DNA from: Podaxis mareebaensis
Taxonomy: Eukaryota > Basidiomycota > Agaricomycetes > Agaricales > Agaricaceae
Direction of reading: 5' to 3'
Length of the DNA: 64,000 bases
Assembly: GCA_018524725.1 (NCBI GenBank)
Contig: JAEUWP010000097.1
Location: 159,245 to 223,244 of the forward strand
Shown piece by piece: positions 32,403 to 64,000 of this stretch (within the stretch, counting starts at the first letter, position 1; each line of letters opens with the position of its first letter). Below the pieces are notes generated by a model. The model was not told where the DNA came from and did not search any database. It worked only from the letters and a program-made list of their open reading frames with translations. The translations under genes were made by a program, and so were the position numbers.

Positions 32403-35400
32403 TCAGAAGTGAGTAATTGTCTTACTCAACCCGGGTGCAGTAGTCAGACCAGCCAGTATCTTTCCAGCATACACGACTTGAATCTTCCTCGGCACTGCCT
32501 GCTTATCGACATTGAATGCAGCTTTAGTTGGCTTTCCTTTGTTCCAGGTAAGGTCCACCGAGATGCCCCCGCGCACGCGAGCACCTCTGAGGGATCCTTT
32601 TGACCACTGTGAGGGAAGAGCTGGGAGGAGGGTGATTGTCAGTGGGGTGGAAAGCGTCGGAACATCGGGTGCTTGGAGGAGAGCGTTCTGGAAAATCATA
32701 ATAGTGTTAGCTACGCGTGTATGCAAGCATCAAAGTGGTTGGGACGGACCATCACGGCGGAAGGATACGCGAGGTTAGCGTCGATCTGGAAAATCGGGTT
32801 CGGGTCGAAGGGGTTGTACATCGAGAACAAGTTAGCGGCAAAGTTCCTCTCGATGCAATACTGCAGAAATATCATGCCAATGCCCCCTTTCAGTCGTCAC
32901 GCCCAAAACTCGGTAAATCAACATACCGTAAGAATATGATAGAACGTCTCTGCATCCCCAAGTTGAGCATACGCGGCTGCACGCCAAGCCTTCTCCCAAC
33001 CCGAGTCCGCATCCGGGCCTGTCCCATTCCCTCTATGCACCAAGCTTGTCCGCGCAGCATCGAGGACCTGTTGCTTCGTATACGTCGTTTGCTGACCATT
33101 CACCACGACTGGCCCCTGAAGAGTAGTATCGTATGATGCAACCGCGTAACCAGGGAAGAGACCAATGAGATGAGATAGGTGGCGGTGGGTGTCTGAAGGG
33201 GAGTCCTGGTCGACTTTCCATTCTTGTAATTGACCCCAGGAGCCTATATGTAGGCCTTTGTCAAGCTTGGCACGCGCAGCACGGATGTCATCGAGGAATT
33301 TGGCATCGGTATCTCCGGAAGCTGCGAAGCCTTTCTCTACGGCGTTGAACAATTGCCAGATGATTTGCTGGGCATGTGCGCATCCTACCAGGTTGAGTAT
33401 AAAAATACCACTGACTGGACGGAGTGATGTCATACCGAAGGTAATTGGGGTCTGTTCCGGCGAGTTGCAGGGACTGACGACCAAGGTGGAATCATTGAAA
33501 TGTTGGTCTTCCACAAGGTTATCAAGGTGGAAAGAGGCAACACCCTGATTACAGAATGAAACCATCAGTTGGAGAGGGCTTTCGCGATTAAGCTTACTTT
33601 GAGTAGGGGCCAGCCCGTAGATTTCCACCAGGCAACGTCATTAGTAAAATCAAAGTAATCCCACACATGAATCATCTGAAGATGGGTTAACATTAGCCCC
33701 CCATTTAATACGCCTCGCAACGCACCATCCAGACATTAGACTCTGATTAAAAATAAGCCTCCAGCAGCGCCATTGTCAATATCCACGGAAATGGACGTAC
33801 CAGGGTAATCAGCCCATTGTGCAGAATTTCCACCATCAGAACCTTTCATACCCGAATGTCCGAAAATCTGGCCAGGTCGCTGAGCATGTGTGCAGTCCAC
33901 TGTTTTAGGCCAGACTTACGTTCATCTACGACGACATCAGCAAACATATATTTAGCACTGGGTCGTTACTTGCCTCGTTGTGGACAACCCACCCTCGTGT
34001 GATATTGTAGAGCACCTCGGCCGTGTAAGCTCCTCTAGGAGCCCAATTTTTCTGGTCACGGAGGCGCTCGGTTAGTAGTCTTCCAGAACAAACGACTCAA
34101 GTGCATAATCTGTACCAGAAGGTAATTAAACATCGGCTTGGACACATCCAGGTTAGTCATATCTGCAGGCCAATAGTTCATTTGAATATTAATGTTCGCA
34201 TCTGCCAACGATCATCAAAGCCACAAAATCAAAGTCAATACCAGGGATGGGGTCATTTGGAAAACAGGGACTTACGGTAGTCTACATTCCATATCAATCA
34301 TTAAGTACCAAGCCGGAATGAAATAAGTTCTCAGTTCCAGGAACGGTTCAACTAGATGCCGGATAAAACGCACCAGCAGACCACGCATTCCCGATTCCGT
34401 TCGCCCATTTCCCCTGCAAATTCGCTGGTAATACACCCCTTGCACTACTGGCGAGCAAATATCTCCCATAGTTAAACAACAACCACTCGATATAAACGTT
34501 CCCAGCCAAATTGTCCACGGCATCAATTTGGTACTTATCCACCAACACGTCCGTGGGCTTGTCTAGCTGTGCCGTCTGACCAAGATCTAGCGCAAAAGGT
34601 GTAGTAGTGAAAGCCTTGTAATCGTCGACATGCTGCGCGAGAATACTAGCGAAAGATGGGGATGACGTTGCGTGTTTGGCAAGGAGAGACACCAGGGTAT
34701 CGTGTGGATCCGGCCCACGGAAGGAGAATCCGGACTCTGCGTCTCCCGCATCGAGGTTAAAGTTGGTATCGCCGACCCAGGTTATCCATGCCTCCTTTGC
34801 TGCACCAGTAACCTCGATAGTGGCATTCGGTGGCGAGTCAGAGGTTGTAGGGAATTGTATACAGCGAACAGTGCCGCCGGGTGCGTTTGCGCGTGCGAGG
34901 AACTCGTACAGCATACTTGAAGCCGAGACGAAACCACGGACCTGAAGAGTATTCGAGTTTAAGCAAGTAATGTTCGGTGCGGAGAGGCCATCCTCGAGAG
35001 CGGAAGAGAACGCATAGGTGAGAGTGGGGAGGGTTCGAGCACCAGATAATACAGAGGGATTGATGTTGGTGTGTTGTGTGCAAGCTCGGGTGGGATGGGA
35101 ACAGAAAAGCGTCCTATCATTGGGTTAAAGACAGGACTGCTTGAACAAGACGACTGCTTATTACCGTTGGTATACAGCCCCATCCTGAGTCCAAACAGTC
35201 CTGGCGACGGCCTTGTCAAGGTCAAGGTACCGCCCATAGTTCGTTACAGCGCCAGTCGAGTTGATATTGGAAATAAGGTATCCTGCTCCGGCATAAGAGC
35301 CTGTGGCTATTTTAGCACGCCCGTATGGAAGGGGGACAGGACAACACAAAACAAGGATAGTCTCCTATAGACATACCATATTGCCCCGCATCCGTTGTGA

Positions 35401-35917
35401 GAACGTTAATATCTGAGTGTGTTGTTAGTGCCGGGGTCCTTGCTCGAAGAGCGAAAGCTGCATACTATCAATATCGCCAGTTGGACTCTGGAAAATCCTC
35501 TGGCGGATATCTTTCATGGCCTGGGCCATAGCATCTCGTTCAGACGCCTGCTTGTTACCGCCATTATAATTCTGGAATGTTAAAAAATGAGGATGAATCC
35601 AATGCACGAAACAGCAAATGTACAGGGTCAGCGAAAGGACCACCGGACCAGAGGGACTCGATGTTAAGTTGAACAGTCTCCTGAGTCGTTCCCCCAGGCG
35701 TTGTTGCTATATCCCGCATCGTGAGTATCATTCAGGAGACAACAGTAAGTTACATGCCTGCAAGGTAGCCATTGCCAACTGGAAGCCACTCTCTTGACCA
35801 GACGAGGCCAGGTTTAGTGTACCAGAGACCATTCCCAGAAGAAGGGAAGCCTGGAGGAGCGCCCCGAGCTACAAGTAGGAAATGCAGCAGAGCCAAAAGA
35901 CAACGATGAATCCACAT
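32403..35917 (-). CDS. GH95 alpha-L-fucosidase, 17 exons
   Basis: Seventeen exons close to 858 residues: 35758-35917, 35624-35706, 35466-35571, 35377-35412, 35165-35300, 34374-35113, 34276-34281, 34116-34201, 33974-34066, 33920-33925, 33801-33867, 33726-33742, 33598-33675, 33436-33544, 32927-33384, 32750-32860 and 32403-32687. A signal peptide ([14 protein letters not shown]) predicts secretion. Glycoside hydrolase family 95 motifs: [105 protein letters not shown] and [21 protein letters not shown]. It should cleave alpha-1,2-linked L-fucose or related sugars. Two 6-nt exons and one 17-nt exon encode conserved residues, and introns 1 and 9 begin with GC (GCATGT, GCAAGT). Confidence 0.92.
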
Positions 35918-35998
35918 CCTCAACGTCGCCAGCAAGGCGGGCAGAGAGGGAAGGGAGGAGTAGAGCAGCAGAAAGTCGATGTGATCCATATGGTCGCG

Positions 35999-61248: not shown

Positions 61249-62061
61249 ATGGCTAACTTGGTACAGTCTGCGAAGTCTGGCAGTGACTGGTCGAGGAACG
61301 AGCTGTTTGCATATGATATTTCGATTCAAAGCCTTTCCCCAAGCGAATTCTTTCCTAATGGTGCAGAACCCTCACTAGATCACTTTCACCCCGCCCTCCT
61401 CACCTTGCCCACTGGCTTTTACAGCCCTGCTCTTCCACCCAATGTCATCAATTATCTTGGGTACCTTGACCTGGCAACTTCCCAGTCGGCTCAGGACAGC
61501 ACAATTGATGACTTTGTTGTATCAATTCTGTGTCTTCTCGGCTTCAATGACTTCGAGAAGTTCATTCTCACCCACTATGATATACCCCTCTGTGTCTGTG
61601 GTGACACTGATCGTGCTGCTATGGCAGATGTGTGTCTCATTCACTATTTGACTCTTGTCTTACTTGTCATCATTGGAGATAAAGTCATGGCAAGCCAGGG
61701 GGATGTGGAAGCTCAGGTCATAGCAGAGGCCATTGCCACTTTCCAGTCCAACAATTGAGAGCGTACAGACAGAGGTCTTGCCCCTCTGCCCAAAATGACT
61801 ATTCCTGCCATCACAATGTTTTGCACCTGTCCTACCTTCTACCTCATTCCTGTTACAGAAGAATTGAGCAATGCAGTGATCATTGGCCTGTACCCTGCAA
61901 CTCCAACTGTCATCTCCAAGTGTGTTACTGTTCTAACCCATGCCCGTCGTGCAACTACTGGCATGGAGGATGTAGAATACAGGAGGCTTGCTCTGCAATA
62001 CTTCCTTGCATTCAAGGACCTTGCACAGAGCTACTGGGATGAAATATTGGTGGGTTTCTAG
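61249..62061 (+). pseudogene. Basidiomycete repeat-family protein, one in-frame TGA
   Basis: From the ATG at 61249 a frame runs SAKSGSDWSRNELFAYDISI, PNVINYLGYLDLA, DDFVVSILCLLGF, IPLCVCGDTDRAAMADVCLI, IIGDKVMASQGDVEAQVIAEA and FQSNN, stops with TGA at 61756-61758, and continues in the same frame with ERTDRGLAPLPKM, FYLIPVTEELSNAVIIG and DLAQSYWDEIL to 62061. The parts together match a large family of unknown proteins scattered in agaricomycete genomes (patterns SAKSGSDW, VDDF, IPL.CG, AEAI..FQ.NN and the closing FY.IPVT). The family has Arg near the position of the stop, so CGA to TGA mutation is the simplest explanation. No intron can remove the stop without losing conserved residues on both sides. 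Confidence 0.75.
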
Positions 62062-62335
62062 GTGCAGGCTGGTTAGGACTATCAGATTTCAATGGAGGAT
62101 AGTGCTATTCTAAGACATCTTATATAATATACTGTAGCATGTTAATTGTGACTATTTGTAATATCAGCCCAAGATTCAAAGTTCTGAACTCATAGCAGTT
62201 CACAGTTCAAGTCCTGAATTTTGTAAGTGTGTACCCTTACACTCTCAAAAAATTATTATTTATTGCATCATATTAATCACATAATGTAAAGCTGGATGGC
62301 TTTATGGTTGATTGACTTTATACTCATGCAATCTA
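62062..62335. other. Spacer with weak tRNA-like stretch
   Basis: AT-rich and CpG-poor. Around 62170-62225 a T-arm-like GTTCAAGTCC occurs, but no acceptor or D stem pairs, so it is at most tRNA-derived repeat debris. Confidence 0.3.
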
Positions 62336-62551
62336 CAGTGGCATCCAAAAGTACTGCACCTGCACATGACCTCATGATTTCATCTTGCCTATCTTGTACA
62401 TACTAAGTTTGAGGTAAAAAGAACAATTGTAGTGGATACTCTAGGACATAGTAAATTGTAATCTAGCTGCATTGTGACCATGAATCAACCCAAAGGAATG
62501 TAATCTAGCTATGACTTCAAAATGGCAGGTGCAATTCTTTTGGATGCCATG
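62336..62551 (+). mobile_element. Tc1/mariner-type MITE, about 215 bp
   Basis: Terminal inverted repeats: CAGTGGCATCCAAAAGTACTG at 62336 (then CACCTG) and, reversed at 62526-62550, CAGGTGCAATTCTTTTGGATG (then CCAT). They pair over about 25 bases with three or four mismatches. The left end follows TA, the target of Tc1/mariner elements, and the inside has no coding capacity. Confidence 0.7.
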
Positions 62552-62961
62552 ATTTCTACCTACTGCAAACTATATAAACACAATGAGAGTGTACATACAC
62601 TTCATCCTTTACCTCATCTCACTCCTCTACACTATAGGCTATACCACTCCATCAAATGTGTGGCTGAGCTCCACTCACTCAGTGTGTCATATGCCAACAT
62701 TGGTGTCAGAACCAATCTTTATTGCACTACTGCAGATGTCTCCTCAAGAGATTCAAGAAATCTTAAGATCTATACTTTGTGAGACCAAAGTCTGGCTGCC
62801 CTTGAAAGCTGGATGGGCATGATGTTTGAGCTAAGGCCCATTTGCTTGCTTGAACAGAAGTTGCCAATGCCATAGAATTAACAAGAATAGCATTTCCAAA
62901 TGTGTTTCATTAAACTATTACATGCTCTCTGAAGAATTACAGATTGATCTGTTGCATTTGC

Positions 62962-63150
62962 AGGGCCTGTCCCTACATTTCCCTAACCAATCAGAAGAAG
63001 TGGCTCCAGTGGGCCATCAAGCATTGTGATTGGACCATTGATGACTGGAAGAAGGTCATTTTCTCAGATGAATCAAAATTTCTCCTTTTCAAGTCAGACA
63101 ACTGCCAGTGTTATGAATTAGAAATATTCACTATGTATTCTGCATTATGA
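62962..63150 (+). pseudogene. Tc1/mariner transposase fragment
   Basis: The stretch PYISLTNQKKWLQWAIKH followed by DDWKKVIFSDESKFLLF is the block containing the second catalytic Asp of Tc1-type DDE transposases (VIFSDESKF). The frame ends at 63150 after YELE, and neither the N-terminal helix-turn-helix part nor the last acidic motif was found, so only a fragment remains, next to the MITE. Confidence 0.75.
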
Positions 63151-63546
63151 TTTCCTTTATCTTTTATCTGTATTTGTACTTGTATTCTTTGGATTGTTAT
63201 CACTTTTGAATATTTGTCTCATTTCTTTATCTTTTGAACAATAGTTTAGATGAAAATAGTTGACCTATTTTTATATAAACTTTCTCATATGACTTTAATA
63301 ATTGATAAGCTTCAATTCTATTCATAGGAAGAAATATTCAAAGTTAAAGAAGTTTTTTGTAAAGAAGTTCTTCTATCTGTTCTTAGAATAGACTAACTTC
63401 TTTCTGGTCTCAAATTGATCTCTGAGTCAAGCCTCAGCTGAAGAAGCTTCATTAATTAGATAATTAGAAGTTCTTCTCATGATGTCTCATGATAGATATA
63501 CTTAGATACACTGTCCTTAGGTATATAAACTGTTGACACTTATCAT
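63151..63546. other. AT-rich spacer, no gene
   Basis: No coding potential. A TATATAAA motif at about 63522 lies shortly before the large inverted repeat and could be a promoter element of a repeat. Confidence 0.35.
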
Positions 63547-64000
63547 TTCTACTTGGTTAGGTACAGACTTGAATAGAAGTTTTTATCAACTGAAGTGATA
63601 TGAATTATAAGTTTTATAGTTCTAAGCTTTAATCTCTGTCACTCTCTAAGTTGCTTGAGCCTTCTATTGAGGAGTAGACATTATTGTGATATGAAAGATT
63701 ATGTTATGAACTCAACCCATCTGTTATAGTGAGGCTGCTTTGGTCCATAAAGAGGCCCGATACATATCCGAAGATTGTATCAAAGGAGACTTCTTGTGTA
63801 CTAACGGATAGATTACCTTTAAGCACTGACAGAGTCAACACATCAAGATAACTATTACTTATAGTTACACAATATGTCTACTTCCTCAATATAAGACTTC
63901 AAGCAACTTAGAGAGCGATAGATATTATAGAGACAACTTAGATCGTATCACTAATTGTTGATAAAGACTTATATTCAAGTCTCCACCTAACCAAGTAGAA
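63547..64000. repeat. Large inverted repeat reaching the right edge
   Basis: The segment starting at 63547 (TTCTACTTGGTTAGGT, then GACTTGAATA, TTTATCAACT, CTCTAAGTTGCTTGA, GGAGTAGACAT) is repeated in reverse complement from the right edge inward (64000 back to about 63845): TTCTACTTGGTTAGGT, GACTTGAATA, TTTATCAAC, CTCTAAGTTGCTTGA, GAAGTAGACAT. Arms are about 150 bp with scattered mismatches, and the space between is about 150 bp. The repeat may extend beyond the window. Probably terminal repeats of a DNA transposon or an inverted pair of LTR fragments. Confidence 0.7.

What the first reader, a model, noticed from the sequence alone, without database searches (positions are those of the whole stretch)
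33920..34281. Two 6-nt microexons in one GH95 gene
Seen directly: on the minus strand ACTACC (34276-34281) is flanked by AG upstream and GTAAG downstream, and ATGAAC (33920-33925) by CGTAG and GTAAG. Inserting them gives SADYHANINIQMNYW and VVHNEMNIFG, both conserved GH95 blocks; leaving them out breaks frame or motif. The full 17-exon chain then closes at 858 residues. Exons of 6 nt are near the lower limit for spliceosomal recognition and are routinely missed by gene callers, which would mis-annotate this gene and its orthologs.
Basis: partly seen in the sequence, partly recalled or inferred. Interest (0 to 1): 0.8.

Follow-up and report, generated by a model that had tools for sequence, protein, structure and literature searches.

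The report
Two six-letter exons in mushroom enzyme
A mushroom sugar-cutting enzyme gene has two coding pieces only six letters long, one of which encodes part of the enzyme's active pocket, and many database versions of this gene from related fungi lack exactly those pieces.

Summary
On the minus strand ACTACC (34281-34276) and ATGAAC (33925-33920) sit between AG and GTAAGT, and the stated junctions are right. A 17-exon GH95 gene results; I get 853 residues (877 from an upstream ATG), not 858. Spliced alignment of five homologues, with no splice-site profile, recovers both microexons exactly. Each conserved peptide has one bridging solution; a matching site arose in 9 of 20,000 shuffles per interval. 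Of 158 listed homologues, 102 have residues at both places, 36 lack exactly YH and 40 exactly MN, as expected of skipped microexons. Two Serpula lacrymans annotations, 99.4% identical, differ in precisely this. Nine of nine homologues from contigs of at most 5.2 kb have both pairs. Microexon 1 encodes Tyr422 and starts the codon of His423, which aligns with a proposed fucose/galactose specificity residue beside the catalytic asparagines. Skipping keeps the frame, and six bases is not the lower limit: 1-nt exons are published. A third small exon (17 nt) and two GC-AG introns go unmentioned in the finding. Known kind, new instance; splicing in this species is not shown by reads.

The parts
32403..35917 (-). 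GH95 (alpha-L-fucosidase-like) gene, 17 exons, 853 aa from ATG 35917 (877 aa if ATG 35989 is used)
34276..34281 (-). microexon 1 (exon 7), ACTACC: last two bases of the Asp421 codon, Tyr422, first base of the His423 codon
33920..33925 (-). microexon 2 (exon 10), ATGAAC: Met478 Asn479
34282..34373 (-). intron 6, 92 nt, GTGCGT...TGTAG, upstream of microexon 1
34202..34275 (-). intron 7, 74 nt, GTAAGT...GGCAG, downstream of microexon 1
33926..33973 (-). intron 9, 48 nt, GC-AG type (GCAAGT...CGTAG), upstream of microexon 2
33868..33919 (-). intron 10, 52 nt, GTAAGT...GCCAG, downstream of microexon 2
34374..35113 (-). exon 6 (740 nt), ends ...NAWSA + first base of the Asp421 codon
34116..34201 (-). 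exon 8 (86 nt), starts with the last two bases of the His423 codon, then ANINIQMNYW with the two asparagines aligned to the catalytic pair
33974..34051 (-). exon 9 (78 nt), ends ...GWVVHNE
33801..33867 (-). exon 11 (67 nt), starts IFGHSG
33726..33742 (-). exon 12, a third small exon of 17 nt (ESNVWM region)
33436..33544 (-). exon 14, carries Glu563, aligned to the general acid Glu501 of 4UFC

Best explanation
The two 6-nt segments are constitutive spliceosomal microexons of a GH95 alpha-L-fucosidase-type gene of an Agaricaceae-like mushroom. Shown here: position, splice signals, uniqueness of the solution, conservation of the encoded residues, and the pattern of skipped copies in databases. 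Inferred: (a) the arrangement is shared by homologues in many other mushroom-forming fungi; (b) each flanking intron is short (48-92 nt) and recognised by itself (intron definition), so exon length matters little; (c) because factors on both ends of a 6-nt exon would collide, the two introns are removed one after the other; (d) more weakly (about even odds), the downstream intron goes first and fuses the microexon to the next exon, since the two donors that match GTAAGT at all six positions follow the microexons. Microexon 1 supplies Tyr422 and the first base of His423. His423 aligns with the residue proposed to distinguish fucose- from galactose-cleaving GH95 enzymes, two and four residues before the asparagines aligned to the catalytic pair. 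Gene callers that leave the microexons out keep the frame, so the error goes unseen.
For: Sequence and frame. GH95 domains N, catalytic and C: Pfam E 8.7e-43, 1.5e-114, 6.5e-12. Spliced alignment without a splice-site profile, seven homologues tried: P0010, P0009, P0074 and P0079 each give all 16 introns of the model, P0004 all 15 in its span; the two that lack the residues (P0001, P0119) give direct joins. One and only one solution for each peptide among one- and two-intron bridges. Identity among those that have the residue: Y 97%, H 95%, M 87%, N 97%; among the 12 commonest sites of exact 2-residue deletion only these two are in such conserved columns. Exact skips: 36 of 158 at YH, 40 of 158 at MN. 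Serpula lacrymans S7.9 (P0085) versus S7.3 (P0119): 99.4% identity over 855 columns, one with both pairs, the other with neither. 9 of 9 ORFs from contigs of at most 5158 nt have both; six of those contigs leave only 154-418 nt beyond the coding length (my arithmetic), too little for 16 introns of at least 48 nt. Alignment to 4UFC places His423 on Thr370 and Asn425/Asn427 on Asn372/Asn374.
Against: No RNA-seq or cDNA of this genome was available. No genomic DNA of another fungus could be read, so intron positions in relatives are inferred from the exact place of the two-residue losses. In seven proteins of Fomitiporia, Sanghuangporus, Phellinidium and Phellopilus site 1 is intact in 7 of 7 while site 2 is skipped or irregular in 6 of 7, so site 1 may not be a microexon there. 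The donor asymmetry holds for the six intron positions only: with the last three exon bases included, the donors before the microexons match as well (7 and 7 of 9) as those after them (6 and 7 of 9), which weakens the inferred order. A YTNAY branch candidate was not found for intron 10 (nor for introns 4 and 15). AlphaFold models were made of homologues, not of this protein, and their confidence is below 50 at or next to both sites.
Confidence: 0.94

Rival explanations
1. The microexons are not used: each interval is one intron (or a twin intron, an intron within an intron) and the protein simply lacks YH and MN, as in the skipped database models.
For: The direct joins 34374-34201 and 33974-33867 are in frame and are what spliced alignment gives with the skipped proteins P0001 and P0119. 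28 of 158 homologues lack both pairs exactly, among them the closest one, P0001.
Against: The residues are otherwise strongly conserved, 9 of 9 short-contig ORFs contain them, bacterial GH95 structures have residues at these places, and a 99.4% identical Serpula gene is annotated both ways.
Confidence: 0.03
2. The microexons are real but alternatively spliced: a skipped isoform is made on purpose and gives a protein without the pocket histidine, as with the regulated Trichoderma Xlr2 microexon.
For: Both are multiples of three; loss of one tends to go with loss of the other in database proteins (95/6/6/21, Fisher p 1e-13, 128 of 140 classified).
Against: The joint loss is also expected if whole annotations either handle tiny exons or do not; 0 of 9 short-contig ORFs are skipped; the Serpula pair differs by annotation of nearly the same gene.
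Confidence: 0.05
3. Other splice sites supply the same residues.
For: None found.
Against: Enumeration of one- and two-intron bridges with GT/GC-AG sites and introns of at least 20 nt, within 34405-34160 and 34002-33840, gave exactly one solution per peptide.
Confidence: 0.01

Closest known systems
1-nt exon of CYP621A in Fusarium (PMC12940212, part 1 of 3 of the text read)
   Same: Ultra-small fungal exon inside a conserved motif, missed by automated annotation
   Different: 1 nt, loss breaks the frame; ascomycete P450; supported by SRA reads, which I lack
Small plant microexons, 1-15 nt (PMC8831610, passages seen, start of abstract)
   Same: Conserved, in protein motifs (including a glycoside hydrolase family 32 domain), pervasively misannotated; conserved GTRAGT donors noted at a 1-nt exon
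   Different: Plants, 990 RNA-seq sets; different genes; the terms fung and fucosid did not occur in its main text
P450 microexons of Phanerochaete chrysosporium (PMC1184071, passages seen)
   Same: Basidiomycete; shortest exon given as 6 bp, frequent introns of 45-55 bp
   Different: P450 genes; the passages seen do not tie the exons to catalytic residues
Xlr2 microexon switch in Trichoderma virens (PMC11121469, passages seen)
   Same: Fungal microexon affecting carbohydrate-active enzyme biology
   Different: Regulated inclusion in a transcription factor
Codon-sized microexons of Tuber nank genes (mentioned in PMC4986451, one passage seen)
   Same: Fungal microexons of codon size
   Different: Used for diversification by alternative splicing
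GH95 enzymes AfcA (2EAB-2EAE) and BACOVA_03438 (4UFC) (PMC4491172, passages seen)
   Same: Same family, domains and aligned active-site residues
   Different: Bacterial

Membership tests
Spliceosomal microexon (very short internal exon) | AG before and GT after, short length | tested here: met
Spliceosomal microexon (very short internal exon) | Encodes conserved residues in frame | tested here: met
Spliceosomal microexon (very short internal exon) | Included in mature mRNA of this species | not testable with these tools
   no RNA reads; indirect support from 9 of 9 short-contig ORFs of relatives
Spliceosomal microexon (very short internal exon) | Same exon limits in relatives' genomic DNA | not testable with these tools
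   no fungal genome collection at hand; exact two-residue losses at both sites are indirect support; one viral-contig scan gave one remote locus only
GH95 | Pfam domains PF14498, PF22124, PF21307 above cut-off | tested here: met
GH95 | Fold of GH95 crystal structures | tested here: inconclusive
   a homologue (P0004), not this protein, was modelled (mean pLDDT 75.9); its 15 best chains are of the entries also found by sequence, TM 0.69-0.76 by query length
GH95 | General acid Glu and catalytic Asn pair | tested here: met
   by alignment only: Glu563 on Glu501, Asn425/Asn427 on Asn372/Asn374 of 4UFC
GH95 | alpha-L-fucosidase activity | not testable with these tools
   His423 aligns with Thr370 of 4UFC, the counterpart of AfcA His419; the authors call this Gal/Fuc difference not definitive
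Spliceosomal twin intron | Nothing between the outer splice sites is kept in mRNA | tested here: inconclusive
   no mRNA; indirect evidence against it: the inner 6 nt encode conserved residues

The most novel reading that the evidence does not exclude
The two microexons act as a paired, in-frame switch: under some condition both are skipped, giving a GH95 protein that lacks the fucose-pocket histidine and so changes from enzyme to binder or to another specificity, and some of the skipped database models describe that isoform.
Probability: 0.05. Interest if true: 0.75.

Novelty: new member of a known kind. Interest (0 to 1): 0.42.

Why it matters
Over a third of the listed homologues (56 of 158) are not clean at one or both sites, 48 of them by exact loss of a residue pair; 36 of 158 lack the Tyr-His pair of the active pocket. 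Anyone expressing one of those 36 models would test a protein without its pocket histidine. The exact two-residue scars also offer a cheap way to find microexons from protein alignments alone, and the gene is a natural test of how fungal spliceosomes handle 6-nt exons and in which order the flanking introns leave.

Tried and rejected
Single-intron bridges were enumerated (up to 30 residues between the flanking motifs): four for site 1 and thirteen for site 2; each deletes the conserved residues, adds unconserved ones or contains stops. A length of 858 residues was not reproduced. A viral-contig scan for homologous DNA gave one remote locus (23% identity in its best segment) and no fungal gene. 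A plasmid search gave no match. In its own genome all 11 matches at E <= 0.01 are exons of this gene, so no paralogue was at hand for comparison. The age of the microexons was not argued from Botryobasidium, because P0079 is 78% identical to a Lentinula protein and may be transferred. A two-residue gap at 743-744 (22 exact deletions) lies within exon 16; 8 of the 27 rows with that gap were looked at and show natural length variation. The AlphaFold model of skipped P0001 was used only for its local confidence. A twin intron was considered and rejected on indirect evidence. tRNA and Rfam scans of the window found nothing. Literature searches for fungal and basidiomycete microexons and for GH95 with exon listed no paper that by title or start of abstract describes microexons in fungal GH95 genes; one search listed 20 of 61 and one search listed 20 of 406, the others all; the bodies of most listed papers were not read.

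Full report
WHAT IS THERE. The window lies in a 37 Mb genome of 429 contigs. The nearest protein listed is a GH95 protein of Macrolepiota fuliginosa, 83% identical (P0001), so an Agaricaceae-like fungus is likely (family name recalled). On the minus strand, 35917-32403, a gene of 17 exons encodes 853 residues; an in-frame upstream ATG at 35989 would give 877. Pfam finds the three GH95 domains. In its own genome all 11 protein matches at E <= 0.01 are exons of this gene. Exon 7 is ACTACC (34281-34276) and exon 10 ATGAAC (33925-33920); exon 12 is 17 nt (33742-33726). Introns are 48-92 nt; introns 1 and 9 use GC donors.

IS IT REAL. I wrote a spliced aligner that scores codons with BLOSUM62, requires GT or (at a higher cost) GC donors and AG acceptors, and has no splice-site profile. 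Seven homologues were tried. P0010, P0009, P0074 and P0079 gave all 16 introns of the model; P0004 gave the 15 in its span. P0001 and P0119, which lack the residues, gave the direct joins at both sites; they share 9 and 10 of their 13 introns with the model and also differ at exon 12 (P0001 at intron 15 too). In shuffles of the intervals a codon-compatible AG-6mer-GT occurred in 9 of 20,000 for each site, and with GTAAG in 0 and 1. Enumeration of one- and two-intron bridges found one solution per peptide.

RELATIVES. Three protein searches matched 3493, 1175 and 483 proteins and each listed its best 120; the union is 158 proteins and all 158 were aligned. With patterns slightly widened after inspection: residues present at both sites 102; both exactly skipped 28; only the second skipped 9; only the first skipped 6; first present and second irregular 6; first irregular and second skipped 3; both irregular 2; first skipped and second irregular 2. 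'Present' also counts a few with changed residues, such as SYALDIN. Before widening the first class had 100. Irregular ones include insert-like stretches (P0049, P0054, P0118), which look like other annotation attempts at the same spot. Among the 12 commonest sites of exact two-residue deletion the other ten are in less conserved columns; the two microexon sites are in columns 87-97% identical among those that have the residue. The closest case is Serpula lacrymans: P0085 (S7.9) and P0119 (S7.3) are 99.4% identical over 855 columns, one with ADYHANIN and DEMNIFG, the other with ADANIN and DEIFG.

TRANSCRIPT-LIKE HOMOLOGUES. Nine proteins have contigs of at most 5158 nt (source label lgn for eight, jgi for P0109; I take them to be assembled transcripts, which the tool does not state); 9 of 9 have both pairs. 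Six of them (P0074, P0078, P0089, P0091, P0094, P0109) have contigs only 154-418 nt longer than their coding length, computed by me, which cannot hold 16 introns of at least 48 nt. The other three contigs (P0010, P0123, P0126) are long enough that length alone decides nothing. P0103 (Scleroderma citrinum, annotated, both skipped) is 86.8% identical to P0074, which has both.

A LIMIT TO THE SHARING. Seven proteins of Fomitiporia (P0101, P0141), Sanghuangporus (P0142, P0143, P0146), Phellinidium (P0144) and Phellopilus (P0154) have site 1 intact in 7 of 7, while site 2 is skipped or irregular in 6 of 7, all but P0141. Site 2 looks like a microexon there and site 1 perhaps not.

WHAT THE RESIDUES DO. 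In the alignment to 4UFC, His423 falls on Thr370, Asn425 and Asn427 on Asn372 and Asn374, and Glu563 on Glu501. The 4UFC paper (PMC4491172, passages seen) names Glu501 the general acid, Asn372/Asn374 the counterparts of the proposed catalytic Asn421/Asn423 of AfcA, and Thr370 the counterpart of AfcA His419, which helps house the C6 methyl of fucose; it calls the Thr/His difference a possible specificity determinant, not a proven one. Tyr422 comes wholly from microexon 1 and His423 takes its first base from it. The second pair, Met478-Asn479, aligns with Thr-Asp in three bacterial structures (4UFC, 8ZBV, 7KMQ); its role is not known to me. Histidine at 423 suggests a fucosidase rather than a galactosidase; this is inference.

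HOW IT MAY BE SPLICED. The only two donors of 16 that match GTAAGT at all six intron positions are those after the two microexons; picking just these two of 16 by chance is 1 in 120, but the pattern was noticed afterwards. The donors before the microexons are GTGCGT and GCAAGT, with TAG acceptors. Against this, when the last three exon bases are counted, the donors before the microexons match 7 and 7 of 9 positions and those after them 6 and 7. So removal of the downstream intron first is only a weak inference. Intron definition is also inferred: a review (PMC8624252, passages seen) says it is thought to prevail where introns are small relative to larger exons; here the introns are small but so are two exons. 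PMC11121469 says fungal microexons were experimentally tested only in S. pombe and cites a 2000 paper on intron definition there (passage and reference seen; that paper not read).

WHAT IS KNOWN. Microexons missed by annotation are well described in plants (PMC8831610), and a 1-nt exon in Fusarium P450 genes with read support appeared in 2026 (PMC12940212). A shortest exon of 6 bp was reported in Phanerochaete P450 genes in 2005 (PMC1184071). So the kind is known. My searches listed no paper on microexons in fungal GH95 genes, within a library that lacks most subscription journals and with two of the lists capped.

LIMITS. No reads of this genome, no DNA of related fungi, no activity data. The exact losses in relatives show where something separable lies, not the exon limits themselves. 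The listed homologues are the best 120 per search, not all matches, and the three lists overlap.

Noticed in passing
window 33742-33726 (minus): A third small exon of 17 nt; spliced alignment with skipped proteins P0001 and P0119 goes another way here too.
   Followed up: partly
window 35757-35707 and 33973-33926 (minus): Two of 16 introns use GC donors (GCATGT, GCAAGT), both recovered by spliced alignment despite a penalty.
   Followed up: partly
window 62000-64000: AT-rich end (G+C 0.28-0.41 per 250 bases) is a multicopy repeat: 89 matches in the own genome, itself included (40 of 93 candidates scored), the last 280 bases often 90-95% identical.
   Followed up: partly
homologues P0002, P0030 and P0101: Leucocoprinus/Leucoagaricus proteins P0002 and P0030 read SYALDIN (Ala for the pocket His, Asp for the first catalytic-type Asn); Fomitiporia P0101 reads DYHLDIN. 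Possibly altered specificity.
   Followed up: no
homologues P0101, P0141-P0144, P0146, P0154: In these Fomitiporia, Sanghuangporus, Phellinidium and Phellopilus proteins site 1 is intact and only site 2 is disturbed (6 of 7), as if the first microexon were absent there.
   Followed up: partly
homologue P0079: Botryobasidium GH95 is 78% identical to a Lentinula protein, more than I would expect for such distant fungi; possible transfer.
   Followed up: no
window about 37841 onward (plus): By eye, the opposite strand starts a protein like an NAD-dependent epimerase or reductase (MPAISKPTGSTRILVTGVNGFIA); not searched.
   Followed up: no
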